A stretch of 64,000 bases of DNA from Thuidium tamariscinum (taxonomy: Eukaryota; Streptophyta; Bryopsida; Hypnales; Thuidiaceae), in contig OX344753.2 of the NCBI GenBank assembly GCA_947034885.2, forward strand, positions 23,762,347 to 23,826,346. Direction: 5' to 3'. Position 1 is the stretch's first letter. Every line of letters starts with the position of its first letter. The position numbers were made by a program, and so were the translations under genes. Below, one piece after another: positions 3,523-63,527 of the stretch. The notes beneath the pieces were generated by a model. That model was given only the letters and a program-made list of their open reading frames with translations. It searched no databases and was not told the DNA's origin.

Positions 3523-3790
3523 TTAACCCCTAAAGGACCAAATTGCATTTTTTGGCAACATAGCAATTTTGGGCAACTCACTATGGGTGGAGTTTTGTTT
3601 TGTTCTTCCTTTGAAATTTTCACACAACATGTCTCCAAGGAGTATCTTGAAGGCCCAACAATTTTCATAACTTTTGACTACATGGTCAAAAAGTTATTGC
3701 ATGATATGTAATTTTCATTAGTTGGTGGGCAACCCAAAAATTTCTTATAAATTTAAAAAAAAAAATTAATAATTTGAAATTGTTTTTTTA

Positions 3791-3794
<4 letters not shown>

Positions 3795-3828
<34 letters not shown>
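3795..3828. repeat. (TA)n microsatellite
   Basis: An uninterrupted TA dinucleotide run lies inside the family 1 element. The other family 1 copies lack it, so it expanded in this copy. Confidence 0.9.
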
Positions 3829-3830
<2 letters not shown>

Positions 3831-4066
3831 GAAAGATTTGAACCATTCCATTTTGATTTATGAGGTGAAAGTTATGAAGAGATTTAGTTTGTGGGTAGTT
3901 ATGGATTTTCTACTCTAAAATAAACTTTGAAAGCCTATACTTTATTCAATTTTAAATATTTTTGAAAAAACATTAAAATTTTGGATGTTGATTATTTGTC
4001 ACAACATTACAACCATTGGGATTGGCCTTTTCTTTAGTTCTATAATAAAATTTTAACAATTTAGTA

Positions 4067-4646
4067 CTCCCTCTGTTCCACTAAAAAACTCCAAATCAGA
4101 TAGAATCTTTGTTCCACAAAAAACCTCTATTTCTTAATTTTGACCATTTAGTATTAGTTTTTTTTGAAGTTTTTTGTGTCGAATGACCTTGTGAGGGCAA
4201 GTGAAACAATGTGGGAGCAAACCTTAAGATTTGCAAGCTTAGCCTTGCCCATTTAAAGCTCATTGTATAAATTGCTCCTTCAAATACTAGTATTAACAAT
4301 GCATTATGTGCCCACTTTGTACCTATGCAAATTTGATTATAAAGTCAACTAGTTTTTTTTTTTGAATATTTAGGTTAGAGAAGAAGTTTCTAGAATCTTA
4401 GTGTTGCCACCACCCTTTAAATAATTTAAAATAATAGAAGCGGAAACGTTTCCAAACTATGCTAAAAAATTATACTTTGCACATGGATTTTGGATGTTTA
4501 AACGGTAGCACCTAACTAGACATTTTGCATAGATTTGGAGGATGGGTTAATTGTTCTTCAATGCATATATTTCTAGCATTATGACTTAAAAATAGTTAAT
4601 TTCTCAAGGGGAAGATTTTAGGAGGTTTATAGTGGAACAGAGGGAA
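4067..4646. mobile_element. Stowaway/mariner-like MITE nested in a TTAA element
   Basis: The termini are CTCCCTCTGTTCC and its complement GGAACAGAGGGAA, flanked on both sides by TA (4065-4066 and 4647-4648). This is the CTCCCTCYGTTCC terminal type with TA duplication known for plant Tc1/mariner Stowaway elements. The roughly 580-bp interior lacks a transposase frame. A diverged relative lies at 51125-51680. Its position inside the element at 3523-5060 shows that it arrived later. Confidence 0.8.
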
Positions 4647-5060
4647 TACTTGTATCACTCTCTACTTCTTTCCACTCATTAATTTTTTCCTATATGTTGT
4701 ACATTTCTAAATGATGCAAATTTTTTTGAGCATGTAGCCAACTTGCCATGAATAATGAATCCAAAGAAGCACCACCATTTGGGGCATTTTTTCATAGAAA
4801 TATGACCTTGTGAAGTGCAGCTGCCCGGTTTTTTGAAGGGACAAAAAAAGGGTTTTTGTCAATTCAAATGCTAATATCTTGCAATCTACACAGTGGAAAT
4901 TTCTGAAATTTTTTCCACATGTTTTGACACTAGTGTAATAGAAGATCCTATGGTTACATGTGTCAAAAAAAATTTATAAAAAAGTTGGTGCTTATAATAG
5001 AAATGGCAGTTTTAGTGTTTTTCTTTTGTAAAGACATAGTCTCTGACCTTTAGGGGTTAA

Positions 5061-7830
5061 GCATTGTTCAAAATATTGATTTATATCATTTTTTCTTGAA
5101 CAAAGAGGTAATCTTTTCTACGTGCGCACTTTTTATATGACACATCTAGGCTTGTGGCAATTGAAATTGACCCTTCACAAATGGAAGCCCTACTCAACCA
5201 CAAAATAAATGCAATATTTTAAACTACTAAGCAAATAGGCATAAAAAAATAATCTTGTAAAATAAATTTTTTATTGAAAATATTCAAGTATAAATTATAT
5301 TTTCTAAATCTTGATTTCACAATGAATACTTCATTTGATAAATCCTAATCTAGTGAGTGTCACACTAATTTATCAAAGTCACACTACTTTGAATTAACAC
5401 AAGTGATTTGATTAATTTTTTAGGTGATAGTAGTTTCTCTCTTTCAAACAAATTGGACAAATGAGCATACCGATATTGTATAATCATTTCCAATGGTCTT
5501 ACAAATTTTTCTCCTCACATTGTGTCTGCTCTTCCAAAATTGTGTACATTAACTTCTTAAAACGACACATTAATCCATTTCAACACTTGATATATTACTA
5601 ACTCATTGCACTAACCTTTCCATGTTTGTTAAATGGTCTTCCCAAATTCAATCCTTCTTCCATCTTTGGGCATTCATTGTGTTGCCATCATTGCAACTAT
5701 GTTCAATCCAATCTCCATTTTTATTTCAATATTTTTTTAAAAAGAGGCTCACAATCCAATGGCTTTTTAAGTCACCCTTGGATTGATCACAAACTTTGTT
5801 TCATGTCAAACAACATTGCATTTTCATTGTCCACCATTTTGACATACTTTGCATCGAGATTTTTGATGTTATGGACAATTTGAAATCTAGTTTGATCACA
5901 TTCAAATCCATTTTATGATTAAAATTCAATTCAATCTTGTTTAACATCTAGTAAGTTTCTCACTTATAATTCCACTTGTTTGTATTTTTTTGCTGGAGGT
6001 TAATAGTTTGACGCTTATGGGATTTCTTACCCCAAAATTCCACTCTCACAGTGAAGACAAGGACATTGAGCACAAAAGAGAGAGCTCTAATAGTTGTGAT
6101 GTAACAATTTAGGATGAAATTTAAGGACATTGTAGCATGCCATGTTCTGCTTTGTCTAATATTTTGAAGAAGAGGAAGGTGCCTAGTTGCATAACAACTA
6201 AAACAAATCAAGCCATAGGCCTTGAAATTTGTCTAATTGCGCTATGCAAGACTTGTCTCATGAATCTCATTAAACAATTGGAATGCTTGTAGCAAATTTT
6301 CATATGAATTGTTATACTATATATGGAGGCTTAGCTTTGGAAATTGCATTGCTTCTAAAAAATAGTATCTTTCTATTGATCACATTATTAAAAGATTAGC
6401 ATTTATTTGCAAACACTTGCATTGGACAACAAAAGATTGGAGTAGATTGATGAGTCATCCTTAGAATATGAGATGAACTTTCAACATATTTGAATATAGT
6501 TGAAGGCATATAAGAAATATGCATGGAATTATTTAGCCTTCAGTTTTAAGTTTGGCTCAATATCTATCAGTTTGTTACAATTTGGTGTAATTTTTTAGGT
6601 TTTGACAATAGTCTTTTAGTCATTGAGCTTCATATTGAAAGAAATGCAAGTGATTTCATTTATAACCTTTACAAGGGCACATTGAGTGGTTTCTATTTTA
6701 TGCACCATCAACTAAATGAGTTCATGCTTATAAAAGATAGTACTCTAGCCCATTGATATAAATTTCTAGAGATGTGGAGGCAAACTAATGTTATGAAGAA
6801 ATTCGATTGTTCTCCTAATGTACTTGATCTAAATTCCATAGAAAAACTGAATTTGGAAGATTGTTGAAGACATCACTGTGCAAGTCAAAGAAACAAGAAA
6901 CAAATAATGCAAGCAATTTTAGTGTTATGGGATAAACTATCTCTATCTAGAAATTGCAAATCCTCATTTCTAATATGCCCAATAAAATCCAAGATGTAGT
7001 TTCAATAAAAAGTGACAACAATAGATGGAATAAAATTTAAAGATAAGATCCAAATTGTTGTATGATTTTGAATTTTATATTATATATTTATTATGATGCT
7101 CAAAGACTATTCTCTACAATTCCAAGGCAATTTGCAGTTTGAAAATTTGAAATTTTTTAGTGTACTAGAGCTTTATGAAGTTCATGAATTTTTTGAATTA
7201 TACTTAAGAGTTGGGAACAAAATTTGTAAGATTATGAATCCAACTCTACAATAATAAGCTAAAGTACTCTATTATAGGCAAAATGACTATTGAAATATAA
7301 TACTACTATCCAAAAAAATATGGGAATAAATTTCAATAATAGACAAGCAATGAGAAACAATTTTACAAATGGAGAAAAAAAATTTAACTTTATGTGATTT
7401 GAAAAAAATTATAGAAGGGTGTTGTTTTGGGGCTTTCCATGAAAGTTTGTAGACATGTCTATGAACATTAGAAAGATAGCTATTGTAGGACTTCCACCAA
7501 CCTAAGCTTGACTTAATACATGCCTTAAATCAATTTCATGCACAATGACCTCAAAACCAATTGCATAATTCTATTGCCAAAATGAAATGATTTGCATTTC
7601 ATAATGAATTGATGATAGTGTGTAACTATGGCATAAATTTTGTCCATTCTAAACATATAATATCTTCATGCAATAATCTCCCTGAAGCAAGTAATTTATT
7701 CTTTGATTTCTATTTTCTATTTTTCAATACAAATATCTTGATGAATGAGGCTTTTCCTAGATGTCTAGAATGAGAGTTTGAACTAGAATAGGGTAGTTTA
7801 TTTCAATTTATCACTAAGTTAGAAATAGGA
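5061..7830. other. AT-rich intergenic DNA, nothing recognised
   Basis: Short frames only (the longest about 85 codons). I found no domain, splice-consistent exon chain, terminal repeat or RNA gene in this 2.8-kb stretch. Confidence 0.55.
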
Positions 7831-8200
7831 ATTGTGTTAAAACTAGGACTTCAGACCTCATTTAGGCATAGTATAATGTGTTTTTTCAAAAAAAATTGAA
7901 TTAACATTAGTTAGAAAATCAATTAAAGTTTTTCCTACAAAAATCCGTTTGACATTTCAAATTTTTAATCAAAAGTTATGGAATTTCAAAGAGGTGTTTG
8001 AAATTGTTCTTATTATATTTTTTCAAACTTCCTCTTTGAAATCTGTTCATCAATTTTGATTGAAAATTTGAAATGTCAAATGGATTTTTGAACTTGAAAC
8101 TCCAATTCATATTCTAACTAGTATTAGTTCAAATATTTTTGAAAAAAGACATTCTACTATGCTTAAATGAGGTCTGAAATCCTAATTGTAATACAAAATT
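7831..8200. repeat. Foldback element (long inverted repeat)
   Basis: A left arm of about 165 bp (7831-7995) and a right arm (8030-8200) are imperfect inverted copies. Examples are 'cttcagacctcatttaggc' against 'gcttaaatgaggtctgaaat', and 'tttgacatttcaaattttt' against 'gaaaatttgaaatgtcaaa'. Only about 35 bp separates them, so a transcript would fold into a long hairpin. No coding is seen. It is most likely a foldback-type MITE. Confidence 0.75.
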
Positions 8201-13250: not shown

Positions 13251-13256
13251 TCAAAA

Positions 13257-16600: not shown

Positions 16601-16738
16601 TACCAAGCACGCTTGACACGGCAGACAGCCAACCCTCACGATCTAATTTCCAAACTTTTAGGTTTCCTATCCCAAGCATTTGGAGATAAAGCTTTGCAGT
16701 AGGGATGTCAAAAAAACGGTTGCACTGCACTCAGGGGG
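13671..16738. other. GC-richer unique-looking DNA without an assignable gene
   Basis: Composition resembles the gene islands rather than the AT-rich spacers, and scattered frames of 60-130 codons exist on both strands. No chain of phase-compatible exons was found. A minus-strand stretch at about 16075-16690 has a Leu-rich texture that could be a decayed leucine-rich-repeat gene, but stops interrupt it and the match is not convincing. Confidence 0.35.
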
Positions 16739-17719
16739 GCTACCCGCTAAATGCGCCACTGGAGACCACAAGTGTCCTCACCTAGTTTCAAGTCCAATTC
16801 AAAGAGCTGTAACTGTTGCATCCAATGTTCAAATTCAATAAAACTTGTTGGGAAATTTGTGCTCGCTCTTCTAGTTTGTGTGGTAAAGACTTTCAGATCA
16901 ACTGAAGATGTACAGAGTTTTTGGAAGCCAATCAAAGTTCTCAGATTCAACTTGAGTACACCACATTGCATTCGATGGCTGCAATTTCAGGGATGTGTAT
17001 CTCCCTCATCCAATGATTATTTTCAAAAAATATTTGATGGGTTATGTTCCCCTTGAAGTCTAGTTATTGTGGTAAAAATTTCATGTCAATTTAAGTTGTT
17101 TTGAATGTTTAGGAGCAATTCAAAGTTTAAAAATTCTAACATTATTGGATTGAAGTGAACTTCGGCATCTTGTTTCTTCTTCATTCACTATCCGTTTCCA
17201 ATCATTTTTTTTGGAAAAGTTGCACATACTAGTCTTGTTTGTGTCCCTAAAATTTCATATCAATCCAAGAAGTCATGAGTGAGTGAGAAGCATTGTGGTA
17301 GGAGGTTCAATCTTAGCTGCATTTTTTGAAACTTCTCTTGCCATTTTGCAGACATTTCACCATTTTGCAGACATCACAAGTAATTTGAAAGATGTTCTCT
17401 TTCAACAATGTGTTTTTATGCTAGTTTTGAATCACTTAATAGCTTAAAGTTTCTTCATTTGAAGAGGTTTAGAAATCAAAATTCACCTCTAACTATGTTT
17501 CTAGGAAAATTTCAGCATCTTTTTTTAAGACTAAAACATTATATTCTTGCAGTCAATAAGGCTGAATGACTCCAAAATTTGATTTTCATCATCTACATCA
17601 CATACACTACAAGATTGTACGGTTGGGATTTCTATACCTTAGTGACATTCAGATCTATAACACTCCATAAGCAATGACGTCTTTAAATCCAAAAGGGCGT
17701 CTGGGCTTGTTGGGGTTAA
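16739..17719 (+). mobile_element. TTAA-flanked non-autonomous element, family 3
   Basis: The right end reads GTTGGGGTTAA (TTAA at 17716-17719). The left end is eroded but recognisable (ctacccgctaaatg against TTAACCCCTAAA). The interior ('tcctcacctagtttcaagtc', 'aataaaacttgttgggaaa', 'gtgaacttcggcatcttg') matches the element at 25427-27337 over most of its length, apart from that copy's nested insertion. No transposase frame is present. Confidence 0.65.
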
Positions 17720-18491: not shown

Positions 18492-21400
18492 TCAAGCTTG
18501 ACATTTGATAGAAAAACAGATGCAGCTGCTCCAAATACTCCTTCTCTTGGACACGTTGTGTGGGCTCTTTGGGCTCAAGGATTTGGGCGTTGTTCCCCTG
18601 ATGCGAGACATGATTTGCTGAATGAAATGACCTCCCTCTGGCGATGGTCTCGAAGCGGAGCTCGGCGAGCATTTGTTGTGCGCATCATCCGCCAACAAGC
18701 TCCTCAGCGGAGTGTGAGGTCTTCCCCTTTTGCCTTTCCGTTTGTGCCGTCCCTTGTCGACACAGCCCGCTCCTACACTGGAGTCGATTATGCCTCTTCT
18801 CAAGGAGTTCGAGGCCGACGCGACTTGGTGGTCGTCCGAAGAGATGGCGACTCCTGGTGATGGGGACTGAAGGAAGACGTTGGCCACTGGGGCGGCTTCG
18901 TCATCACGACCCGGAGTGCCTCGTCCTCCGCTGGAGTAAGCTTCCGCTTGCTCTTCCCAGAGCCTGTCTTGGTGGGAGCTGGAGAACGAGGGGTTGGCCA
19001 GAATCGAGATAGAAGAAGGGGCCAGGTGAAACACATCGACAGAGGAAATGCCAGAAGGGGCTTGCAACCTCGATTTGAAACTTCGGGACCTCTCTCGAGT
19101 AATTGCCACATTGGCGTCCAGTGTGGAAAGAGAAGTGTGTTTAGTCGCATTTCGCCCAAGGGTACTGTTGGAACGTGCTGTTTTGGGACCCTCTGCACGC
19201 AAAAACAAAAACAAAGAATGCATTCAGCTCAACATCCTCATCCTGACCCTGGCTTGGATATAACCAAGCTCTGGGCAAGGAATACCGTAGAAGCTCGTCA
19301 ACTTACCAGATCCCATGTATCTTCTACAATGACCACCGTTACCAACAACAATATAGACTAGGCTGGCCTTCAATTAAAGTGGAGTAAGCATGACTTGGCT
19401 AAATGTCGATTGTCACGGTTCTTTGAACGGAAATGGACTAGCCTACTGTCAATTATAGTGGTCTAAAACCTACCAATTTGAAAGTGCATGAGATCTCCAA
19501 CAGATTTGCCTCTTGCTCCCAAATATCTCTCCAGAGCTCTATAGAACTCCCAAAATTTTCACTCCTACATGCCGAAAGTAAGAAAAATAGGATTCTCCAC
19601 CTTAATTTTTTAAGAAGATCGATATTTAAGCCTACTTTCTGACATGGAGGCATATTATCAAGTTCTAACAAGGAACGTCTTGTGGACAGGGAATCAATCA
19701 CCTGTCAGAGAGTCTGAATCGTAGGAGTTCCTTCCCCGGCTATTCGACTTTTTCCTTGCTTTTCCACCACGTCTTTCATCAGCATTTTCTCCTGCTGATG
19801 CGTTCACACTGCCATTCACAATAATTGTCTTGGTTTGGCATTCAGATTTTCCATCCGGTGTAGTTCGTTGCAAATTAGAGTTCACCCGCGCTACTCTTTC
19901 GTGGAAAGAGCTTCCGATCTCTACCGAAGTAGGGGTCATCTCCTGATGTGAAAAAACAATTCCAGGGTTTGTATTTTCCAGTATGGGAGGATGCCTTGAA
20001 ACCATTTCCGATGTAGTCTGTTGATTTGATTGCCGAGAGTCAAATGTACAATCTGCTCTACAGCCTGAAAGACGTCGATGACAAAGGCCAAGCACGTCAG
20101 AAACTGATATGGCGCACAACTTCCTAGATATGTCAAAAACTAATGATCCGACGGTTCGAAACAACTTGCAGCTCTCAAGAGAACGACTACTACCTCCTTT
20201 CAAAAAGAGTACCAATAATTTCATGAGCCCAGGAAAGCCCCTCCGCCATTTACATATTTGCACTGCGTGCTACCTTCAGTTTAGCAATTTGGACAGAAGA
20301 ACCAACCAGGATATGCTGAGATAAACCCACCTGTGCCATCAGTACCTTCCAGATCATCTTTCGGATGCTTCTCAACCTCAACACCATCGGCTTTAGGGTC
20401 AAGCTCAGACTTGAAGGATATTGACTTTGCCTAATGGATCACCAAAAGAAAAATAATATACACAGGGAAACATTCAACATTCCTCAGTTTTAAATCTTGT
20501 GTAAATAAAGGTTCGTCGATTATACCTAGAGAACAAGAGGAGATATTCAAATGCAACCACGAAAAAATCGTAGATAGCAACACGAATTGGAGTCGAAATA
20601 TGCAAGAAATTTGCTGACATCAAATAGAGAAAAATGACTCATACCATTTCACTTGAGTCACACTGACAGGCAGCAGAAGCAGAAACTGGCGAGGATGACT
20701 CAAGTGTTCGCCCCATAGAAATTTGTGCTGTTTTCTGAAGCACATACTCTCTAGCTCGTATTGCATCTACCCCAGAAATCACTTCAGGTCCAACTTTCGG
20801 CAATCTTCTCGTCAGCAAGGGTCCAGAATCCGACACCCTTACAACTTTGAGCAACATGGCTCCAATCCCAGACGCCGACACACTTCGTCGTCTCTTACGA
20901 GCCTTTGACTTCCGATCGGGTTCGGCTTCGGATGTTCCTCGTGCTACAGGCTCAAAACTCATGCATTTCTTCAGACAAGCGTCAGAGTCACAGGAAGCTC
21001 TTAGACCAGTTTCATTGCGAGCGTCCAGTGATGCTTCGTGGGTGCGCCAGTCTGTCTTCAGTAAATTCTTTTGAGAGTCTTCTGAAGAGAAAAACAGAGG
21101 GCCAGTGAGATAATCCTCACTCATAAGACTTGACCGAACGGCAGCCTCTGTGAGTTCTTCCTCGGTGACTTTCTCGATGACGAAGAGAAGGGACGGGATG
21201 TCGTCGACTGCATAAACCTTCTCCCCCCCAATTTCTTCCGAAGAGTCGGTTTCCATACGTGAGCTCTGTGAGCGTATTGATGATGGTCCAGTAGCCAGGG
21301 AAAATGTGTCTTCAGGAGTTACACCTGCAAAAGATTTGGAGTTACTTTCGAGTGAAGAGCACAACAATTTTCTCATTGAAGGACAGAAAAATCGACTGTG

Positions 21401-25426: not shown

Positions 25427-27337
25427 TTAATCCCTATACGTCCCAAGGGACCAAAACTGTCCTCACATAGTTTCAAGTCCAATTCAAAGTGCAACTCTGG
25501 AAGGTCCAAGGCCATTTTTCGGTCAAAAACCACTCAAAACTGCCATTTTTGCTGCATTCATCCAAAAGAACAAAAAAAAAGGGGTTTTATGAAATCGAAC
25601 CATAAGATCTTGTACTTTGTTTGTCTAAGATAATGTGGTAAGAATTTCATGAAGTTAGATCATATAGATTGGAAGATATGAGCATTCAAAATTGGAAAAC
25701 ATAGTTTTTTTAAATACTATTGTACTATTTCAGATGACTTTGATTGCCATTTGTTGAACTTTTTTGCACTATAGACTTTGAATTAAAAAATTTATGTGTT
25801 TAAGAATTGAGTTGAAAGTCTAGGAATTTTTTTATTTTTTTAAATGCTTGATTTTAATTCTTTAAAAGATTATTAAGAAGAGGTAGGTCCAAGATTGAAA
25901 GAAAAATTAAATCGTTAATAGCTCTAAGATGGAATTGAAACACAATAATCCCAATGGTGAGATTGTTCTAGCAAGAAAATTTTACCTTGTCAAGCAATTA
26001 TTTTTGAAAAAATGTAAAAATTGCATTCAGAAATGAATTTTGTAAGTTATTTTTTCAAAAAGATGCTCAAACTACCCAAAAAACAAGATTGTTCATAAAT
26101 TTCACATAACTAATCCAAATGGAATGAATCAAAGCTTTACTTATAGACATAAATATAATGTCTAAGCTTACAAAATTAAAAAAACTAAATTTCAAGTTTT
26201 TGTGGATTTATTTTTCTGCCTGCCAAGTAAAATTTTTGGCTTTTTGTGGTATAAATTTTGCTCCTAGGCACCAATTCAAATAAAAAATTATATTCCCATG
26301 AAGATAATCAATTTTCCTATCTTATGAGAAAGTTTTGAAAAAATTCACTAAAAATTGAGGTCATTGGAACCTGCCCAAACTCCAAATTGTCCCCCGAGGG
26401 GACAATGGGCTTTTAGGGATTAAATTTTGTATCTAAGTCCAATTTCAATAAAACCTATTGGGAAAGTTGCGCAATTTCTTGTAGTTTTGGTGGAAAAATT
26501 TTCAAATCAATCCAACATGCATTGATTTTTTGACAGACATTCAAAGTTCACATGTTCAATTTGAGTTCACCAAACTACATTTGATGGCTGCAACTGTGGG
26601 GGCTTATATCCCCTTCACCCAATGTAAGTTCTTAATAAAATTTATCGGGTTTTGTTCCCCTTGAAGTCTAGTTATTGTGTTAAATCTTCATGTCAATCCA
26701 AATAGTTTAGAATATTTGGGAGCAATTCAAAGTTTGAAATCCCAATATTTTTTATTACAATCAACTTTTGTGGGTTGTTTCTTCTTCATATAGTGTCCAA
26801 TTGAAATCATTTTTAGGGAGAAAGTTGCACATATAAGTATAGTTTTGTGTGGTTAAAGTTTCATGTCAATCCAAGAAGCTAAAAGTGATTGAGAGGCATT
26901 TTGTAGAAGGAGGTTCATTTTAGATGTGTTTTTTGTAACTCTTTTTTGCTATTTTTGACATTTCAAAGTAATTTTGGTGACACTTGATACAATGAGTCAA
27001 TTGAATGATATTTCAAATTTTCACCAATGTGTTTGTATGTTAGTTTTGAATCACTTTATAGTTTAGAATTCTTTTTCATTTGAGTAGGTTTAGAAATCAA
27101 AATTCACCTTCATAAGTGTTTTTAGGAAAATTTAATAATTTTTTTTCAACACTAAAACATTATAATCTTACAATCTATTTGCAAATGACTTTCAAATATG
27201 ATTTACATCATTGACAACACATATCCTACAAGATTGTACAATTGAGATTAGTATGCCTTAGTCACATTTAGACTTGTAAGACTTCAAAAGCAATTATGTT
27301 TTTAAACCCAAAAATGTTGTGGGGCTTTTGGAGTTAA
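25427..27337 (+). mobile_element. TTAA-flanked non-autonomous element, family 3, interrupted
   Basis: The left end is TTAATCCCTATACG and the right end GGCTTTTGGAGTTAA. It matches the element at 16739-17719 on both sides of a roughly 930-bp insertion (25491-26423). The right TTAA at 27334-27337 is followed directly by CCCCTAAAGG, the terminus of a family 1 type end, so two element ends share one TTAA. No transposase frame is present. Confidence 0.7.
25491..26423 (-). mobile_element. TTAA-type element nested in the family 3 element
   Basis: The right end reads CTTTTAGGGATTAA and the left end is eroded (GCAACTCTGGAAGG against TTAACTCCTAAAGG). The left interior 'ccactcaaaactgccattt' resembles the reverse orientation of family 1. 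The family 3 element continues on both sides, showing later insertion at an internal TTAA-like site. Confidence 0.55.
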
Positions 27338-29875
27338 CCCCTAAAGGAGGTTGCCCCTCTTCATATGGTGACTAAACAAAGAAAGACTCAAAAATACAAA
27401 TGGCAGCTATTATAGCATAGCATATTGTTTAGGACTAATTTTTTTTTCATCCTTAGAAGAAACATAGGAGAGGTATATTTTGAAATTTGCATAATTTTTT
27501 AGTAAGAGGAAAATGATCAAAGATATTCTTGTATTCCATTTTAACAATAAAGGAAATCAAAATATAGTAGACCACATTGTGATTCCTACTTGCGTTAGGG
27601 GTGAATTAGAACAATATTTTTTTGTCTTGTAACCAAAATTAGGTTTTCCATGCATAAGGGTTAATAACCATAATATTATTCAACAATGAAGCATGGTATT
27701 TTTGGAAGTCATTAACATTTTAGGGGTGATTGCAAGAAACACTTGTACTATTTGTTGCGTTATCATGATTTTTTGGGGAGAACTTTAGAATTAGAAAATC
27801 AATTTTTGAATTTTTTTTAAAATATGACTAATGTATACAACTTTAAGATGAAGGTACCTAGAGAAGGATTTGCATAGAAAAATTCTCTAAGTAGAAGTAC
27901 TAGAAAAGTGCCAAGTCTCAAGATGGTCATTCATCAAAAAAATCACTAAAATAATATTTTATATGCTTCAAAATGCAAGCACAAAGAAGCTAACTTTGTA
28001 GACTTCCACACCACATAAAAATATCTTTAAAAAAAATTCCTTCCCTGGAGAGCTACAAGTCTACTAGAAGAGCATCTCATCCAAATTTTAGCTCAAAATT
28101 CATTTTTGGGGTACTAAATAGTGACTAAAAACCTCCAAACTAGCTAGTGTGACATTCGATCAAGGTCTATTTTTGGATAGTGAACTATTTTTGAAAATTA
28201 TAAAAAAATCAAATAAGGTTTTTGATAGTCATGACTACCTTCCCTACAAATAGTGAGTCAATTGAAGCCAAAATACAAAAGTTATGGCCAAAAAATAAAG
28301 TAATATGCAAGATGTGATGCAAAATAGTACAAATATTTCTTGAAATCACCCTTAGTTCATTTTTATTAATTAGTCATGCATCAAATCACTTCCTTCACTC
28401 AATTGGTAGTTTTTCATTTTATTTTTCAAAACCATGGAAGCCTATTTGGAACACTTTGCCTCTATTATTTAACTCTTAGCAAGAATTAGCCTAGGTCGAA
28501 TTCGTCCCTCAGATGCCAAAATCGAATTTCCGCATCAAATTCTCAAGAATCAACATCCCTTCAGACCATTCACAAGATGACAAGTGTCCCCTTTTCCACA
28601 AAAATGGCTTAATTTCTGCCGAATCTGACCTCCAGTAGGGTAGATTTGAGGTTGAAGAAAAAGTGTCATATTTTAACATCTTTATATTATGTGAGGACTC
28701 ATTATGTAACTCAGTCAGTCAACTGCTGTGCATCTTACAAGAAAAACAACTGCAGTCCAATAAGGGTCCAATTATCTGAACTTTCTGATCAGGCTGACAA
28801 TTCCCCAGACCAATCAACCAGTGAGGCCCAGAATTCTGTTGCCTGAGTGAGTTAAGTTAAGATAGCAGGTCTGGCTTCTTTTTAATAAGCTAAGCTACCC
28901 TTGATTTGGTGGAGAATTGATAAATCCACAGCAACTGAATACAGTATAATTTTATTATGGATGATGGTCAGATAAAATAAACAAATATTCTTTGTTTGAA
29001 TTCAAGGAAATTTCATAAAACGCAAGGGAAGAGTGAGCCATTTAGGATCTTGATGGAGCTTGTTCATGCCAACACTGCATTTTAGTTTTACAAAGAGAGG
29101 CTGCTAAAAATAAGCTAATTTTTATATTTAAAAAAGAGAGCATATGTAATAGTTCATATGGACTATCATATATGTACAGTAGTGGGTTTTTGTTTGGCTT
29201 TTTTGGCTTTTTCTTGTTTTAATTTCTGTTTTGTTAAAGGCCTCCCAGGCACAGCATGTACCTGAGGGGGGAGGGTAGCTGGGGGAGGTGGCAGGGACCA
29301 TCAGACAAAGATACACCACCATGGCACACTCTACCTTAGTAATTTAAGCTTCTTGTGATTCCATTTCCAAACAAAATATTGTCCCTTGCAGTAAAGGTAA
29401 TCCATTATTTGTGTTGAAAGAAAAATGAAATGAAATATTGGGTACGTGGTGAATGATCAATTTAACAGTGGGTACCGAAGGCCTTGTGATGAGATTGACA
29501 TTCAGTTGCAGACGTGACCGAAGGAAGTTGTGGCCTCATGGAGAGTCACAACAACAAGAAGTAGCCACAGACACCTTCAAGGACACTCACAAAGGCATCC
29601 ATGGCAGGCTCTCCGTAGCAACTGCTGAAAGAAAACTCTTCTTCTGACCAGCCCTGGTCATTCTCACCCAACCATGATAGCATCATGTATTGTAAACCCT
29701 TTCAAATCGGTGGTCGATTTGGGGGGAGGAGCCAGTTTTCTCCATTTTCAGGAATGTAAGTTAGTGCACAGGAGATTGCAAGCTGATTTCAGTTTTAGAC
29801 AATCCAATGTAAAGTACTTGGTGATAAACACCTCCTAAACTTTTTGGTAATTGATTGAACATTCTGATTTTCTGT
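27338..29875. other. Intergenic DNA, AT-rich then GC-richer after 28.5 kb
   Basis: A single family 1 type terminus (TTAACCCCTAAAGG at 27334) opens the stretch, but I could not find its partner. Only 60-70 codon frames occur. The 28.5-29.8 kb part has gene-island composition without an assignable exon chain. Confidence 0.45.
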
Positions 29876-30016: not shown

Positions 30017-30170
30017 TAAGAGTAAATTCATTTTTGTTCCACTCAAAGCCAATCAAAATTCTCTACATCCATTCCTTGGGCACCTAGACCAAATATGCTC
30101 ATGATCCATCCACAATTTTGAAAATACTCTCAATTTGACCAGAAAATGGTCAACGAGACTTTAATCCCTA

Positions 30171-31106
30171 AACGTCCAAACTGCATTTTTTGGCCACATA
30201 GTGATTTCAGGCAACTCACTACAAATGCAGTTTTTATTTGTTTTCTTTGAAATTTTCACACAGCATGTGCCCAAAGAGTAGCTTCAAGGCCCAACAATTT
30301 TCATAGCTTTTGACTACATAATTAAAAATTTATTGTAAGATATGTAGTTTTCATTCCTCAGAAGACATTCCCGGCAAAAAAGAAACTTCTTTAAAAATGA
30401 TTTTCTTAAGAAACAAAAATTCGAAATTCATTAATTAGATTTTTATCTAAGTGGAAAGCTTTGAATCATTCCATTTTGATCAATGAGTCAAAAGTTATGA
30501 GGAGCTTTAGTTTGGGACAGTTTGCAACTAGGTATAGAATCTCTATACTACAAAAAAAATTTGAAATTCTTTATTTGATTCAATTTTTAATATTTTTGAA
30601 AAAATAAGAACTATATATATAGATTGTTTATTAAAACATTTTAACCATTGGGATTGGCATTTTCCAATTCCATAAATAAATTATTTATTATTTATTATTT
30701 TGGTTCATTTTCTACTTCTTTCTACTTACTATTTTTTTTCTATATGTTGTATAATTCCAAATGATTTGAATTTTTCTAAGCATGTAGCCAACTTGCTTTG
30801 AAAAATGAATTCAAAGATTAATCACCAATTTGAACTTTTTTTCATACAAATGTGACCTTATGAAGTACAACTTCCTGGATTTTTGCCAAGCGAAAAAATT
30901 TATATTTGTTGATTCAAATGATGATATCTTGCAATCTACATGGTGGAAAATTCTAGGATTTTTTCTACATCTTTTCAAACAAGTATACTATAAGATTATA
31001 GGGTTACATTTGTCAAAAAAAAATTCTAAGTTTTGGTACATGTATTAGAAATGGCAATTTTGGAGGAGTTTTGGTGAAAACATAGTCAAAAACATTTAGG
31101 AGTTAA
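30171..31106 (+). mobile_element. TTAA-flanked non-autonomous element, family 1
   Basis: The left end is TTAATCCCTAAACG and the right end CATTTAGGAGTTAA. The body is colinear with 3523-5060 without its Stowaway insertion: 'cattttttggc-acatag' near the left end, 'ggtgaaaacatagtc' near the right. Length is 936 bp with no coding frame. It faces the copy at 31191-32136 across an 84-bp spacer. Confidence 0.8.
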
Positions 31107-31190
31107 AGGGTTAACTCTTTCTCAAAACTCGTTTGCAAACTAGATAGAGTAAGATTCTAAGGCATGAATATTGTAAATGGTTAATCCTTT

Positions 31191-32136
31191 AAGGATTTTG
31201 ACTATGTTTTCACCAAAAAAATTCCAAAACTATCATTTCTAGTACAAGTACCAACTTTAAGAAGAAAAGAAAACATTTTTGGAGACATGTAATAATACGA
31301 TCTTGTAGTAAACTAGTTTGAAAAGATGTAGAAATTTTTATAGAATGTTCTACCTTGTAGATTGTAAGGTATGAGCGCTTGAATTAACAAATTTTATTTT
31401 ATTTAACCTTGCAAAAAACCAAGCAACTGCACTTCAAATGGTCACATTTGTATGAAAAAATGTCCAAAATGGTGGTTACTCTTTGGATTTGCTCTTCAAA
31501 GCAAGTTCACTATATGCTTGAAATTTTTCTAATCATTTCAAATTGTACAACATTTAGGAAAAAAATAATAAATAGAAAGAAAAAGACTATGATCCAAAAA
31601 ACTAAATTATTAACAATTTATTTACAAAATTGAAAAATGCCAATTCCAATGGTTGTAATGTTGTAATAAACACCCTACATGTAATTCTTTTTTTCCCAAA
31701 AAAATATCAAAAATTGAATTAAATAAAGGATTTCAAACTTTTTTTGTAAAGTAGAGACTCTATAACTACCTACAAACTACTTCAAACTAAAACTCTTCAT
31801 AACTTTTGACTCAATGATCAAAATAGAATGACTCAAATCTTTTCACTTAGATATAAATCTATAAAATCAATTTCAAACTTTTTTTTTTTTTTGAAGTAGT
31901 TTTTTAAGAAGTTTTTTTTGCTAAGTGGGTTGCTTGTTGAGCAATAAAAACTACATATCACACAATAATTTTTTAACTATGTAGACAAAAAATTATTTAA
32001 AAAAATTTGGGACTTAAAGGTACTCCTTGGAATTTTTTTAAAAAATTAAGAAAATAAAAATAAAACTCCATTTGTAGTGAGCTACTCAAAATCACTATGT
32101 TCACAAAAAAATGCAATTTGGTTCTTTACGGGTTAA
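31191..32136 (-). mobile_element. TTAA-flanked non-autonomous element, family 1, inverted partner
   Basis: The left end TTAATCCTTTAAGG runs into 'gactatgttttcaccaaaa', the complement of the family's right end. The right end is CTTTACGGGTTAA. It is 946 bp in the opposite orientation to the neighbouring copy, so the two form a large inverted repeat. No coding frame is present. Confidence 0.8.
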
Positions 32137-38000: not shown

Positions 38001-38079
38001 GTTTCATTTGTGCCAAAAATAAATAAATAAATAAAAATAAGATACAAGCCTGCCAAGTGCCAACCACCTGGTTTGTACT

Positions 38080-39664: not shown

Positions 39665-40237
39665 TTAACCCATAAGAATCCAAATTCATCTCCAAAATCA
39701 ATGATTTTGGAAAAATCATCATAAAGTACTATTTGGAAGAATATTTTTGAATTGAGATTCAAATAAAAGTTGCATGGTTTGAGTTTTAGATTCTATCGAT
39801 ATAAATAGATTCACCAATGCTATCACTAATATTTTTCTATAAATTTTGAAAGGAAAAATTCAAAATTCCTTTTTAATTGAATTACAAGCAAAACATTGTC
39901 ATTTTTGAGTAATTTTATTTGAATGGATTTGATAGGAGGTTCTCTTGACATAGTGATTATTTGGAATTTTGTGTTCTTTGATGCTATGACCTCATTTTTA
40001 CAATTCTAAGTTTGAACTAAAGTCAATACAAGTCAACCACTTGACATACTTCCACATTTGTAATTTTAGAAAATATATACTCTAGTAACATCAAATCCAA
40101 CCCTTGGATAGGACAACAACCTCATAAAGTATTTCTAAGAATTAGGATGACTTTCATCCAAGTTGTAATGAAAAAGAAATTTGGTTTTCAATCTACAAAT
40201 CATCCAAAAATTGGATGTTGGAGTGCTTATGGGTTAA
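39665..40237 (+). mobile_element. TTAA-flanked non-autonomous element, family 2
   Basis: The left end is TTAACCCATAAGAATCC and the right end GTGCTTATGGGTTAA, a 573-bp element with CCCATAAG inverted termini inside TTAA. A diverged relative lies at 50526-51103 (shared 'tgattttggaaaaatcat', 'gtactctagtaaca', 'attaggatgactttcat'). No coding frame is present. Its right TTAA is followed at once by CCCTTAAAGG, the end of another TTAA-type element. Confidence 0.75.
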
Positions 40238-42296: not shown

Positions 42297-43173
42297 TTAA
42301 TCCCTAAAGGTTTTTGGCTATGCTTTTACCAAAAACACTTTGAAACTACCATTTCTAGAATAAGTACCAATCGTAAAAAAATAAACATTTTTGGACACAT
42401 GTAACCATAGGATCTTGAAGTATGTTGGTTTGAAAAAACGTGGAAAAACTTCCAAAATCAACAAAAATATTTTTTTTGGCCTTGCAAAATTCTAGGGAAT
42501 TGCACTTCACAAGGATCACATTTGTTTGAAAAATGTCCAAAATGGCGGTGCTTCTTTGTATTAATTCTTCAAAGCAAATTAGCAGCATGCTTGAATAACT
42601 TTAGATCATTTTGGAGTGTACAACATATAGAAAAAATAGTAGATAGAAAGAAGTAGAGAATGATTCAAAATATAAATTGTTAAGAATTTATTTATGGAAT
42701 TGGAAAATTCTAATTCCAATGGCGGTATTGTTGAAATAAAAAATCTATATTCAATTATTTTATTATATTTTCAAAATTATTGAAGATTGAATTAAACAAG
42801 TGACTTCAAAATTTATTCTAGAGGAGAGAATCCATAACTACTTGCAAACTAAAACTCACCATAACTTTCATTTCATTAATCAAAATGGAGTGGTTTGAAG
42901 CTTTTTTTAATGGATAAATGTCAACAAAAACAATTTCAGGTTTTGTTCCTTCAAAAAGTGATTTTTTTAGTTGCCTAGAATGGTAAAAAAACTACATATC
43001 ATACAATAACTTTTCAATCAAATGTCATCAAAATTGTTGGACTTGAAAGCTACTCCTTGACCACATGTTGTGTAAAAGTTTTAAAGTAAAATAATGAAAA
43101 TTCCAATTATAGCAAGTTGCCTAAGAGATCTATATTTCAAAAAAACTATTGACCTTGAGACTTTAGGGGTTAA
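42297..43173 (-). mobile_element. TTAA-flanked non-autonomous element, family 1
   Basis: The left end is TTAATCCCTAAAGG running into 'ttttggctatgcttttacc'; the right end is GACTTTAGGGGTTAA. The body is colinear with the other family 1 copies in reverse orientation. Length is 877 bp with no coding frame. Confidence 0.8.
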
Positions 43174-46320: not shown

Positions 46321-46324
46321 ATAT

Positions 46325-50525: not shown

Positions 50526-51103
50526 TTAACCCTTAAGCATCCAGATTCTTTTGTAGAATTGATGATTTTGGAAAAATCATTATAAAATACTATTTGGAAG
50601 AATATTTTGGAATTGAAATGCTAATAAAAATTGTAGAGTTTGAATTTTAGATTCCATATACTTGTATGGTTAGATTCACCAATGTTATCACTGATATTTT
50701 TCTACACATTATAGAAGGGAAAATTCAAAATCCCTTCAAAATTCAATTACAAGCAAAATATTTTTATTTTTTGAGTAAATTTTGTTGGAATGGATTTGAA
50801 ACAAGATTTTCTTAACATGGTGATTTTTTGGGATTTTTGTGTTCTTTGATTTCTTTTTGCAATTCCAAATTTGAACTAGAATCAATGCAATTTTGGCTTC
50901 ATCAACTAGTTGACATACTTCTACATTAGTAATTTTAGAAAAATATGTACTCTAGTAACACCAATTTTAACCTTGGATAGAACAACTACATAAATTATCT
51001 TTAAAAATTAGGATGACTTTCATTCAAGCTATAATGAAAAAAAAATCTAATTTTCAATATGTATATTGTCTAAAAATTGGAAGTCAAAGTGCTTCACAAT
51101 TAA
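50526..51103 (+). mobile_element. TTAA-flanked non-autonomous element, family 2, diverged copy
   Basis: The left end is TTAACCCTTAAGCATCC. The right end 'gtgcttcacaattaa' is eroded but aligns with GTGCTTATGGGTTAA of the copy at 39665-40237. The interior is colinear with that copy; length is 578 bp. Confidence 0.65.
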
Positions 51104-51124
51104 ATGGATGTAGAATGATTATTA

Positions 51125-51680
51125 CTCCTTAATTGTATTCCTCTAAAAACCTCCAAATCAAGCACAATTCTTGTCCCACTAAAAATCTATTGATTTTGAC
51201 TCTTGAGTGGATGTTGAATGACTCCATGTGAACAAGTGGCAAGTGATTTGGAAGCATTCCTTTCCTAGCCTTGCCCATATAAGGCACCTTGTACTTGTTG
51301 CTTCTTCAAATAGTCATGTTGACAATGGATTCCGTGACTACTTTGGCACTATGAAGATTTGTGCATGAAATAGGCCAAGGTTCCTTCTTGCAATAATTAG
51401 GTTGGGAGTACATATTTCTAGAATCCTATTGTTGCCAACCAAACTTTAAATCATCAAGAATGATGAAGTAGCAACATTTACAAATGATGCTCAAATATGA
51501 TACTTTCATAATGGATTTTGAATGCCTCAACAATGGCACCTAAGTTGGAAATTTTGCATAGATCTAGGGATGGGTTACTAGTTTCTTAAGTGCATGTATC
51601 ACTAACACAAAGACTAAAAATACAATTAATCCCTCATGGAAAAGGTTTTAAGAGGTTTCTAGAAGAACAGAGAAAGTATC
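51125..51680. mobile_element. Stowaway-like MITE, diverged copy
   Basis: A relative of 4067-4646. The left end reads TTACTCCTTAATTGTATTCC and the right end GAACAGAGAAAGTA. Interior matches include 'gccttgcccatataaggc' and 'tagaatcctattgttgcca'. It lies just upstream of the first exon of the plus-strand gene at 51720 and could contribute to its promoter or leader. Confidence 0.6.
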
Positions 51681-51719
51681 ACTTATTGTGGTTTCCAAAC
51701 TAACAGGTTGAAAGTGCAT

Positions 51720-52469: not shown

Positions 52470-52599
52470 AGAACCAACCACCAAAAGTAGCGCTATGACA
52501 ACTGGGATGTTTGACAAAGCTTCAATCCATGCATTGCACTTGGTATACTGGGTCCACACAAGCTGGACCAAAGAGTTGACGACATCCTTTTCAATGTTT

Positions 52600-59700: not shown

Positions 59701-59763
59701 CTAACGGATGAAATTGCAAAAAAAATCTCAAGTTTTGAGACGACATTGCTAGAAATTACAAAT
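56732..59763. other. Promoter side of the minus-strand gene and unassigned GC-richer DNA
   Basis: The tract at 57.0 kb ('ttagggacctgacctaatctcc') and one at 55.39 kb ('ttagggacctgatcctgtctcc') are related, marking an old dispersed repeat. Telo-box-like AAACCCTAA sites occur at about 57751 and 58049, a motif common in plant promoters. A frame at 57397-57969 (190 codons, no ATG start) is open but not protein-like. The region beyond 58.9 kb is AT-rich and empty. Confidence 0.4.
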
Positions 59764-59935
59764 GTATATGTATATGTGTATATGTATATATGTGTATATG
59801 TATATATGTGTATATGTATATATGTGTATATGTATATATGTGTATATGTATATATGTGTATATGTATATATGTGTATATGTATATATGTGTATATATGTG
59901 TATCTATCTATCTATCTCTATATATTTATATATGT
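59764..59935. repeat. 16-bp minisatellite passing into (CTAT)n
   Basis: About eight near-perfect units of GTGTATATGTATATAT, then a short CTAT tetranucleotide run at 59903-59917. The repetitive frame of I/Y/V/M/C residues seen here is a by-product of the repeat, not a gene. Confidence 0.95.
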
Positions 59936-61641
59936 GTGCACATATGTGTGTCAATGAATGAAGAAATGACTCTTTTATTCATATTCAATAAATTCTACTA
60001 TGCCATCATGATGGCTTTGAATCTAAGAATTAAATAAATGAAGTGCCTTTTCTTACACAGGTTCCATTCTAATAGACTTACAAGCTTTCATCACCATATA
60101 AATATCCTAAACAAAGTTATGGAAGATAAATTTTGTAGATAATTGATCAATTTGACCTTCATTGATTGTCACTCTTCAAAAGATTGTCTGTAATCTTAGT
60201 ATTCCATAAAATGTGCATTACATTCTTCAACTATTTTTAGGGCCATTTTGTTAGAAAAATCAATGAAGAGGCTTACTTGAAACCATTTAAACCATTTATT
60301 AGAATGATAGAGATATGAGAAAGTAGACAATGATGAAAGAATCACATGAGTAGTAGAAGAAAATAAGAAAATAAGAATAATCAAAATGATGTTTTATAGG
60401 CAAAATAAAGAATTACAATGAATAGTTTAGTACCATAAAAGTATAGTGTTATGTATAAGAATGTTATGTAGGCACACATAATCATTTTGCAATGCAAAAT
60501 ATAAGATTGTCAAGGTGCTAAGAGCAAAGAATTTTCTTCCAAGAAGTTGAAAAGTGATCAACTTCCTATTTAGGATATGAAAAGCATTGACTAGCTATTA
60601 GTAGAAACTTTGTCTATGTGCTCACTACTCATGAACACCAAGGCCACATTAGTTATAACATTCAATTAGGACACATGAAGAATTCAAATTTGTCTTTGTA
60701 GAATGAAGAAGAAGAAGAAACTATATTCAAGGGTTGATATAATCACTCCACCACCGATTTAAGGAATGTAATTTAGAGTTCTTGTACAATGAATTGAGTT
60801 TAAAAATTGTGAATTTGAAATAGGACATAAAGTTTAATTGTAAAAAATCAACATAATTATTTTTAATCCAAACAAATAAATCTCAATCCTTGCTTTACAA
60901 ACTCTCTATTCTCAAATGCCATTTGAAAAAAGATACTAAGATAAAAGAAAAGAAGGCAATTTGGATGAAAGGTGCAAAACTTGACATACTAACATTTTTC
61001 CTATATTTTGAAGAGTCCTCAAATTTTTTGTCTTCCACCCTTGCTCACCAGATATACTCTATATATAGTCAATTAACAATGGATTAAAAAATAGAGCTAC
61101 TCAAAACTTAATTTTGAAGGGTTTTTGGATGGCACTCTGGACTTGAGTGCAAGGAGGATTTTTTGATTAGTAGGTTAAGTTAGGTTGTTTGTTCTATTTT
61201 GCTTGTTACATTGAGATCTCTTAGACCATGCATCCCTTGGTTGTGTTCTTGGTACTATCAAAAAGCTCTTGGGGAGTCATGGTGATTGTAAAAAAGTTAT
61301 TGAATTTGAAGTTGTCATGAATTTAAAAATCTAGAAAATTACTATTACTTTTATTTTGGCTATGGCAAAAGCACAAGGCAACAAAAAACATCTATGTTTG
61401 ACGGGTCTGAAACCATTTGAAGACCATGTCATTTCAAAATTGTGTTTCAGACCCTACCGAGGAAGAAGAATTACCATATAGTATGGCTAAATAATTTAGA
61501 AACAAACTTGCAAGTTGTGATTCTGGCAGGGTGTGAATGTGATTCAGCATTTGAACCCCAGATCCACTAAGTTTGTACCAATGACTCCAGAACCTAACTG
61601 AATCTCAAAGGAAACTCATCTGTTTAAATTTTCTTTAAATT
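59936..61641. other. AT-rich intergenic DNA, nothing recognised
   Basis: Only short chance frames; no termini or RNA genes are seen. Confidence 0.55.
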
Positions 61642-61928
61642 TTTAATTTAATTTAATTTAATTTAATTTAATTTAATTTAATTTAATTTAATTTAATTTA
61701 ATTTAATTTAATTTAATTTAATTTAATTTAATTTAATTTAATTTAATTTAATTTAATTTAATTTAATTTAATTTAATTTAATTTAATTTAATTTAATTTA
61801 ATTTAATTTAATTTAATTTAATTTAATTTAATTTAATTTAATTTAATTTAATTTAATTTAATTTAATTTAATTTAATTTAATTTAATTTAATTTAATTTA
61901 ATTTAATTTAATTTAATTTAATTTAATT
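61642..61928. repeat. Pure (TTTAA)n pentanucleotide array
   Basis: About 57 uninterrupted copies of TTTAA with no visible substitutions over 287 bp. The purity implies recent expansion. Confidence 0.97.
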
Positions 61929-62003
61929 TTTAACCTTAATTTAATTCTTTCAAAGGAAATCTCAAGGAAGCAATCTCACTCCGTCACTGCAGATTAAGCT
62001 TAA

Positions 62004-62399
62004 GAGCATCCCCACACCTGGCTCGGGCAAATGGCCCGGCCAGGGACTACTTGCCGAGCCATTAAGAAAGCCCGGGCCCGGCTAAAAAAATTTGCCCCAC
62101 CCCAACACGGCCAACGAGACGGGGAAGGAAGGTATTTCGGACTTCGAGGTGCCACCTAAGGAGATTCCGACATGAGAAAGCCTTTTTCTAATCCAAGTGC
62201 CTCGGAAGTTGGAAAAAAGGCAAAAACAAACACATGCCGGGTGCACTTGATGGCTCGCCATTTGGCCGAGCCATCACCAAATTTGGCCGGGCCCGGGCTT
62301 ATTTTTTCTTTCCCCGTACGTGCCGTGGGGCAATTCCCATGGCCGGGCCCGGCCAATTGCCCAGTTTGCGTCTTTTTTTGCGGAGGTGTGGAGATGCTC
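62004..62399. mobile_element. GC-rich PIF/Harbinger-type MITE
   Basis: The termini GAGCATCCCCACACCT and AGGTGTGGAGATGCTC form an inverted pair with one mismatch. They are flanked by TAA at 62001-62003 and 62400-62402, the 3-bp duplication of PIF/Harbinger. The 396-bp interior is unusually GC-rich (several GGCCGGGCCCGG tracts) and largely self-complementary, and sits in AT-rich DNA. Overlapping frames inside it on both strands are judged chance. Confidence 0.8.
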
Positions 62400-62573
62400 T
62401 AAGCTTTGCATCTGCCACGCCATCGGCTAATCGGCTTGCCCTGATCTCACTGGTAATAAGTATCATAATGCCCAGCTTTTGTGCACTGGCCATTAACTTA
62501 AGTTCATGAGTGTTAAAATAAAGATGTTAACATAAACTAAGTGAACACTAGTTACTGCCAGTCCAACTAGTAG

Positions 62574-63527
62574 TTAACCCCTAAAGCCCTGAGCTGCGTT
62601 TTTTGGCAACATAGAAATTTCGGGCAGCTCACTACGAATAGAGTTTATACTTTTTTTTCTTTGAAAATTTGATATAACATGTGTCCGAGGAGTATCTTCA
62701 AGGCCCAACAATTTTTGTAACTTTTGACTACACGGTTAAAAAGTTATGGCATGATATGTTGTTTTGTTTGAAGTGAGGGCAGCCTGGGCAGCTGAAAAAA
62801 CTTCTTTAAAAAAACTTTTTTTTCAAAAGTGAAATTTCAAATTGATTCTTTAGGTTTATACAGGAATGGGAATATTTGAATCATTCCATTTGGATGAATG
62901 AGTCAAAAGTTATGAGGTTTTTTAGTTTGAGGTAGTTTCGGCTAGTTATAAAATCTCTACACTACAAAAAAAGTTTGAAATTCTTTATTTAATTCAATTT
63001 TCAATATTTTTGAAAAAAAATAAAAACATTGGGTGTATATTGTTTAACACAACATTACAACCATTGGGATTGTCTTCTTTTAACTTTATAAATAAATTGT
63101 TAATAATTTAGTATTTTGGCTCATTTTCTACTTCTTTCTACTTACTATTTTTTTCCTATATGTTTCACAATTCCAAATGATGTGAAAATTTTCAAGAATG
63201 TAGCCAACTTCACTTGAAAAATGAATCCAAGGAGTTACAATCATTTTGAACATTTTTCCACACAAATATGGTCTTCTGAAGTGCAGCTGCCCGGATTTCC
63301 GCAGTGGTAAAAAACTGATTTTTGTCACTTCAAACACTAATATCTTGCAATCTACACAGCGGAAATTTCTGAAATTTTTTCCACATATTCTTAAACTTTT
63401 TCTCTAAAATATCCTACGGTTAATTTTGTCAAAAAATGTTTTTTTTTAAAATTTGATAATTGTCTAAGAAATGACAGTTTTGAAGCGGTTTTGGTGAAAA
63501 CATAGAGGTTAGGGGTTTAGGGGTTAA
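62574..63527 (+). mobile_element. TTAA-flanked non-autonomous element, family 1
   Basis: The left end is TTAACCCCTAAAGCCC and the right end GGGTTTAGGGGTTAA. Length is 954 bp, colinear with the copies at 30171 and 3523 and without any insertion. Outer flanks (gtag / actc) show no duplication beyond TTAA. This is the cleanest reference copy of the family in the window. Confidence 0.85.

What the first reader, a model, noticed from the sequence alone, without database searches (positions are those of the whole stretch)
3523..63527. A set of plant elements with TTAA target duplications and CCC...GGG termini (piggyBac- or Kolobok-like MITEs)
At least eight elements in the window end in TTAA+CCC(Y)..., with GGG+TTAA on the other side, and show no other flanking duplication: 3523-5060, 30171-31106, 31191-32136, 42297-43173, 62574-63527 (family 1); 39665-40237 and 50526-51103 (family 2); 16739-17719 and 25427-27337 (family 3). 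The families share only the terminal 10-14 bp, as expected if one transposase mobilises unrelated interiors. TTAA duplication with CCY termini is the diagnostic combination of piggyBac; such elements are not generally reported as common in land plants. What is seen is the structure; the superfamily and the missing autonomous source are inference.
Basis: partly seen in the sequence, partly recalled or inferred. Interest (0 to 1): 0.8.

Follow-up and report, generated by a model that had tools for sequence, protein, structure and literature searches.

The report
Recently mobile piggyBac family in moss
The short repeated elements in this stretch of what is almost certainly a moss genome are non-coding offshoots of piggyBac, a "jumping gene" family best known from animals; full-length copies with intact transposase genes are spread through the same genome, some so alike that they must have jumped recently.

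Summary
The structures are real, with corrections. The genome (363 Mb, almost certainly a moss) holds many piggyBac transposase loci: 116 of 116 scored matches over the Pfam cut-off, from 658 candidates. All 20 loci fetched with long flanks lie between TTAACCC...GGGTTAA ends 5.0-7.9 kb apart. Eleven copies of one subfamily have TTAA on both sides and different flanks; the four read in full are 99.94-100% alike. Four catalytic aspartates are invariant in 11 of 11 aligned domains. Empty sites carry one TTAA, one of them for the window's own element 62574-63527. Window family 1 (subfamily B) shares ends with autonomous element L028, sister subfamily A with L027. TTAACCCCTAAAGG occurs 8,526 times against 2 for the reversed control. 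New: an upstream ORF1 unknown to Pfam and PDB in 13 of 14 distinct elements, long transposase frames, and a near-constant ~930-bp MITE length. The paper listings I saw hold no piggyBac described from a moss genome (lists partly cut).

The parts
3523..5060 (+). Family 1 (subfamily B) piggyBac MITE with perfect 14-bp ends TTAACCCCTAAAGG; interrupted by a Stowaway-type MITE
4067..4645 (.). Stowaway-type MITE (CTCCCTCTGTTCC...GGAACAGAGGGA, TA target) nested in the element above; not piggyBac (the type name is recalled)
30161..31106 (+).
31181..32136 (-).
42297..43173 (-). Family 1 (B) MITE, 877 bp
62574..63527 (+). Family 1 (B) MITE, 954 bp; paralogous empty site with a single TTAA in C2:4887449-4887633 (L078); matches L028 at both ends
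492..838 (-).
16739..17719 (+). Family 3 MITE, left TTAA decayed to GCTA
25427..27337 (+). Family 3 MITE carrying a nested family 1 (A) element; family 3 copies at five other loci span the insertion point without it (a sixth row, L003, overlaps L010)
25491..26423 (-). Nested family 1 (A) MITE, 933 bp; both ends match the autonomous element L027; left TTAA decayed to GCAA
39665..40237 (+). Family 2 MITE, 573 bp
50526..51103 (+). Family 2 MITE, 578 bp, right TIR decayed (AATTAA)
27334..27664 (.). Unassigned candidate: TTAACCCCTAAAGG... to ...AAGGGTTAA, its left TTAA shared with the family 3 element's right end

Best explanation
The elements are non-autonomous piggyBac elements (MITEs) of a moss. 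A piggyBac DDD transposase made by full-length elements elsewhere in the same genome cuts at TTAACCC/GGGTTAA ends and pastes into TTAA, duplicating those 4 bp (ends, duplication and empty sites shown; catalysis inferred from homology). Family 1 MITEs look like internal-deletion derivatives: subfamily B, the one in the window, shares ends with autonomous element L028, and subfamily A with L027. Several autonomous subfamilies exist, and at least one has moved recently.
For: PF13843 in the same genome: 116 of 116 scored matches over cut-off, 0 of 14 control genomes. 20 of 20 fetched transposase loci have TTAACCC...GGGTTAA ends around the transposase (I chose the pair of ends where more than one motif was present). 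11 of 11 copies of one subfamily have TTAA at both ends and different flanks; pairwise identity 99.94-100% over about 5,096 bp among the four read in full. phmmer to piggyBat 9c0f (3.4e-27) and the 6x67 transposase (1.2e-21) aligns the D, D, D and D motifs; the four D are invariant in 11 of 11. Both-end matches: subfamily A to L027 in 8 of 8 fetched copies; subfamily B to L028 in 3 of 4 fetched copies and in 1 of 5 window copies (62574-63527), the other B copies matching at one end or inside only; the other 12 distinct elements gave two stray matches of 39-45 bp (L024), L020 simple-repeat hits filtered out. Single-TTAA empty sites. Genome-wide end counts 8,526 v 2 and 1,159 v 3.
Against: The window family 1 copies are old (68-77% alike) and their match to L028 is 71-86% over short end stretches, so L028 is a relative of the source, not the source itself. 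4 of 5 window copies match L028 at one end or inside only. The source of families 2 and 3 was not found. The L016 empty-site paralogue reads TTCA. At the nested family 3 site relatives read GTAA, ATAA or ATTA where the filled copy has TTAA. One of two relatives of the L053 junction has a gap there. 42 of 116 transposase domains carry stops (my count). No expression or transposition data.
Confidence: 0.95

Rival explanations
1. The elements belong to another TTAA-targeting superfamily such as Kolobok, and the resemblance to piggyBac ends is convergent.
For: TTAA duplication alone does not separate the superfamilies (recalled).
Against: The two subfamilies of family 1 share end sequence, beyond the TTAACCC core, with elements that encode PF13843 transposases. 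No Kolobok search was made.
Confidence: 0.02
2. All three window families are moved by a single transposase that tolerates unrelated interiors.
For: Families 1, 2 and 3 share only their terminal bases.
Against: The genome holds many transposase lineages (38-73% identity to the first sequence in the domain) with different TIR extensions, and the two subfamilies of family 1 track two of them.
Confidence: 0.12
3. The piggyBac loci are contamination or an assembly artefact rather than part of the plant genome.
For: None seen.
Against: Matches on all of contigs C1 to C10, near-identical copies in different flanks, and MITE copies nested in other repeats in the window and elsewhere.
Confidence: 0.01
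4. The conserved upstream ORF1 is a first exon of the transposase rather than a separate accessory gene.
For: ORF2 of L022 has no Met before element position 1736, although a region conserved in its group starts near 1580. AGGTGAG, a splice-donor-like word, has its GT exactly 76 nt from the start of the DGAR motif in 5 of 5 elements of one group.
Against: In 3 of those 5 the ORF1 frame meets a stop before that word, and the DGAR to EVVSVQR distance stays 130-133 nt, which a spliced intron would not require.
Confidence: 0.5

Closest known systems
piggyBac of Trichoplusia ni (solved transposase 6x67; that this entry is the T. ni protein is recalled)
   Same: TTAA target; CCC...GGG termini; DDE_Tnp_1_7-type domain; aligned catalytic aspartates. 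T. ni element: 2,472 bp, 594-aa transposase, 14-bp TIR (passage of PMC10140906).
   Different: Moss elements are 4,954-7,936 bp; the longest transposase frame is 847-1,214 aa in 8 of the 11 elements listed, and 13 of 14 distinct elements carry an upstream ORF1.
piggyBat transposase (solved structure 9c0f)
   Same: Best PDB match to the moss DDE domain, E 3.4e-27.
   Different: 578-residue chain against the longer moss frames; ORF1 as above.
piggyBacs of bees (PMC10140906, passages read)
   Same: TTAA duplications; mostly short TIRs.
   Different: About 2.23-3.52 kb and 580 aa for complete elements, mostly low abundance, CAC rather than CCC common at the ends.
piggyBac-class MITEs listed for angiosperms (PMC10004981, one passage read) and piggyBac repeat labels in a fern (PMC6890710, one passage) and a grass (PMC8319324, one passage)
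   Same: The superfamily has been named in plants from MITEs or repeat labels.
   Different: Those passages give only a class name or repeat totals (1,230 fragments, 122,417 bp in the fern; 1 fragment of 75 bp in the grass); none of the passages describes an autonomous transposase, empty sites or a MITE-to-source link.

Membership tests
piggyBac superfamily | DDE_Tnp_1_7 (PF13843) transposase encoded between the ends | tested here: met
   20 of 20 fetched loci have ends on both sides. The MITEs themselves are non-coding; the link is by shared ends.
piggyBac superfamily | Catalytic DDD (plus a fourth D) aligned with known piggyBac transposases | tested here: met
   D144, D249, D365, D368 invariant in 11 of 11; 3 of the 14 distinct elements (L019, L020, L022) were left out because one search shows a stop in their domain.
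piggyBac superfamily | TTAA target duplication with single-TTAA empty sites | tested here: met
   exceptions: L068 reads TTCA, the family 3 nest site has GTAA/ATAA/ATTA in relatives, and one relative of the L053 site has a gap there.
piggyBac superfamily | Terminal inverted repeats beginning YCC, ending GGG | tested here: met
   20 of 20 autonomous loci; 5 of 9 window elements at both ends, 4 of 9 with one decayed end.
piggyBac superfamily | C-terminal cysteine-rich zinc-binding domain | tested here: inconclusive
   Cys-rich C termini are visible by eye in L016, L028 and L014, but no Pfam zinc-finger model was reported at E up to 0.1 in 8 proteins scanned.
piggyBac superfamily | Footprint-free excision | not testable with these tools
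   Needs excision products from tissue or other accessions.
MITE of piggyBac type | Short non-coding element sharing ends with a coding relative | tested here: met
   Family 1: A to L027 at both ends in 8 of 8; B to L028 at both ends in 3 of 4 fetched and 1 of 5 window copies. Families 2 and 3: no coding relative among the 14 compared.
Kolobok | Kolobok transposase with the same ends | not tested
   No search made.

The most novel reading that the evidence does not exclude
Moss piggyBacs form a separate two-cistron lineage: an ORF1 protein of a new domain family is a second, selected component of the transposon, expressed together with a long-form transposase whose frame lies in the +1 phase (11 of 13 elements with both ORFs, overlapping ORF1 in 9 of those 11; phase 0 in 2 of 13). 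The system has been amplifying and splitting into subfamilies for a long time and until recently, with MITE partners held near 930 bp that co-diverge with their transposases.
Probability: 0.35. Interest if true: 0.78.

Novelty: new variant of a known kind. Interest (0 to 1): 0.64.

Why it matters
piggyBac is a widely used gene vector known mainly from animals. A moss with 116 scored transposase matches out of 658 candidates, thousands of exact MITE-type ends and copies 99.94-100% alike shows that the superfamily can be a major and recent force in a land-plant genome. It gives natural material for asking how piggyBac copes with plant cells, where it came from (old inheritance or transfer), how MITEs follow their transposase as it diverges, and what an added ORF1 does.

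Tried and rejected
ORF1 against Pfam (13 members, one hit at E 0.15 to an unrelated family) and PDB (none at E up to 1): no identity found. Viral contigs with the DDE alignment: 13 pattern matches, none confirmed; with the ORF1 alignment the tool found no stretch conserved enough to search with. Rfam at gathering thresholds and a tRNA scan of the window: nothing. Pfam on ten window ORFs: nothing. Literature searches on piggyBac with moss or plant terms: (1 paper; 6, 5 listed; 15; 1; 12, 11 listed; 33, 25 listed; 5; 2; 3), 78 (179, 40 listed). No listing names a piggyBac described from a moss genome; most were seen as listings only, including the Physcomitrella papers. In PMC10619864 the only passage shown with the word is 'piggybacking' (its second occurrence was not shown). 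Unlisted papers, preprints outside the library and subscription papers were not seen; two papers looked up by DOI are not held. A gapped pattern for whole family 1 elements was rejected by the tool.

Interpretations dropped: 3523-5060 as a longer subfamily (it holds a Stowaway-type insert); 25427-27337 as one long family 3 element (it holds a nested family 1 copy). 
Full report
Where the window lies. The window is C5:23762347-23826346 of a 363.2-Mb, 19-contig genome. NB-ARC genes are numerous (126 matches). One chlorophyll-binding protein (C1:32826606) matches chain 9 of structures 8htu and 7xqp at 440 and 422 bits, against 222 bits for the best match outside those two and the polyprotein entry 9vfj (353 bits at best). 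I recall those two structures as Physcomitrium photosystem I supercomplexes and chain 9 as Lhcb9, a moss antenna protein; these labels come from no call. A second antenna protein is less telling: 9vfj first, then 8htu and 7xqp a little ahead of other plants. The genome is therefore almost certainly a moss; the species is not known to me.

The observation. Nine listed elements were checked. With corrected starts TTAA stands at both ends of 8 of 9; strict CCC...GGG ends hold for 3 of 9, YCC...GGG for 5 of 9, and 4 of 9 have one end further decayed; two starts were 10 bp late; two elements are composites. The end motif TTAAYCCCTAAA is 11 against 0.02 expected in the window. Genome-wide, TTAACCCCTAAAGG has 8,526 exact copies against 2 of the reversed control, and TTAACCCYTAARCGYC has 1,159 against 3. 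Among the first 100 listed sites there are 18 adjacent inward pairs under 2 kb, and 16 of these 18 span 915-939 bp.

The autonomous elements. PF13843 gives 116 scored matches, all over the cut-off, out of 658 first-look candidates; by my count 74 of 116 have no stop in the domain. I fetched 20 of the 116 with long flanks. All 20 have TTAACCC...GGGTTAA ends around the transposase; with near-duplicates merged they are 14 distinct elements of 4,954-7,936 bp (L012-L014 99.6-99.9% alike, L015-L018 99.94-100%, L021 and L027 97.5%). For the L015-L018 subfamily I also fetched junctions of seven more copies whose HMM score (269.4 bits) equals that of three of the four: 11 of 11 have TTAA on both sides and 11 different flanks; the interiors of those seven were not read. 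The DDE domain aligns with piggyBat and the 6x67 transposase, and four aspartates are invariant in 11 of 11 domains aligned (L019, L020 and L022 left out for stops).

Empty sites. Joined flanks of 21 autonomous insertions were searched in the genome (40 of 4,955 candidates scored, 44 rows): 39 rows are near-full matches without length change to the L027 junction, one to the L016 junction, and four rows are partial. Of eight fetched, seven L027-type sites show exactly one TTAA, while the L016-type site reads TTCA. Joined flanks of 12 genome MITEs and 9 window elements were searched (40 of 5,602 candidates scored, 42 rows): 39 rows match the L061 junction (four fetched, four with one TTAA), two are short partial matches to the same junction, and one matches the window's own element 62574-63527 (L078, 160 bp ungapped, 4 mismatches, one TTAA). 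The other eight window elements and eleven genome MITEs gave no empty site among the scored candidates. Within the fetched sequence, MITE L053 has a relative of its joined flanks inside the L028 locus with one TTAA; a second relative, at window 27811-28068, has a gap there. In the nested case 25491-26423, family 3 copies at five distinct loci span the point without the insert (six rows; L003 overlaps L010), reading GTAA, ATAA or ATTA in place of TTAA in the four shown.

MITE to source. Family 1 splits into A (L051, L053-L055, L057, L058, L060, L061) and B (L052, L056, L059, L062 and the window copies) (these 12 were picked by their end motif and spacing, so their TTAA ends are no independent test). 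Against the 14 distinct autonomous elements, A matches L027 at both ends in 8 of 8 (for example 1-106 and 4871-5173 at 79% and 72%). B matches L028 at both ends in 3 of 4 fetched copies (1-217 or 1-124 at 77-78%, 7872-7932 at 79-80%) and in 1 of 5 window copies (62574-63527); L052 and the other four window copies match L028 at one end or inside only. Elsewhere L024 gave two stray matches of 39-45 bp, there are weaker cross-matches of A to L028 and B to L027, and a set of simple-repeat hits to L020 was filtered out of the listing. Families 2 and 3 matched none of the 14, apart from the nested A copy in 25427-27337. A and B are mostly collinear with each other, at 65-81% identity in aligned pieces over 40 bp. 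The simplest reading is one old MITE family whose two branches followed two transposase branches (inference). The near-constant ~930-bp length is unexplained.

ORF1. Upstream of the transposase frame, 13 of 14 distinct elements (none seen in L027) encode a similar stretch of about 90 residues around a LGW motif; three columns are invariant in the alignment. Codon positions differ as in coding sequence: in the five-element group 965, 793 and 1,484 mismatches at positions 1, 2 and 3 over 2,367 pairwise codons, with the third position highest in three pairs from other groups (pairs are not independent). No Pfam or PDB relative. ORF2 is in the +1 phase relative to ORF1 in 11 of 13 and in phase 0 in 2 of 13 (L009, L028, where the ORFs lie far apart); the frames overlap in 9 of the 11. 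AGGTGAG stands at a fixed distance from DGAR in 5 of 5 elements of one group. Whether ORF1 is a first exon or a separate gene is open.

How it most likely works. A transposase from a full-length element binds the shared ends, cuts out the element and inserts it at TTAA (homology and insertion structure shown; chemistry, expression and present activity inferred). Near-identical copies in different sites mean recent movement. The window copies are old relics of the same process.

Standing against what is known. It is a piggyBac by the defining features I could test, except that the C-terminal zinc-binding domain is inconclusive; the long frames, ORF1 and abundance in a moss set it apart from the members I could compare. 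Papers seen only as passages state that piggyBac occurs in plants (PMC10140906; PMC10004981), so presence in plants as such is not new; no listing I saw describes a moss case (listings partly cut).

Noticed in passing
25427-27337 with 27334; 39665-40237 with 40234; L017 around oriented position 6481: Elements or candidate ends abut and share one TTAA, as if an insertion went into the TTAA at another element's edge.
   Followed up: partly
L051-L062 and 25491-26423: Family 1 MITEs keep a length near 930 bp although subfamilies are often only about 70% alike.
   Followed up: partly
61642-61929: 57.6 perfect copies of TTTAA, a strikingly pure 5-bp repeat.
   Followed up: no
4067-4645 and about 51266-51672: Two related stretches; the first has Stowaway-type ends (TA target, CTCCCTCTGTTCC), the second is known by similarity only.
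   Followed up: partly
18495-22667 (minus): A run of open frames, rich in Ser, with a 54-bp tandem repeat (22354-22581) and no Pfam match; may be one spliced gene.
   Followed up: no
autonomous elements, 5' end (e.g. L015-L018, L021, L023, L026): Directly inside the left TIR several elements carry a short hairpin-like inverted repeat (for example GACCATTTTCTGGTC), also seen in family 3 MITEs; by eye not seen at the right end.
   Followed up: no
L010, L011, L016, L019, L022 (after the ORF1 DGAR motif): AGGTGAG with its GT 76 nt from the start of DGAR in 5 of 5.
   Followed up: partly
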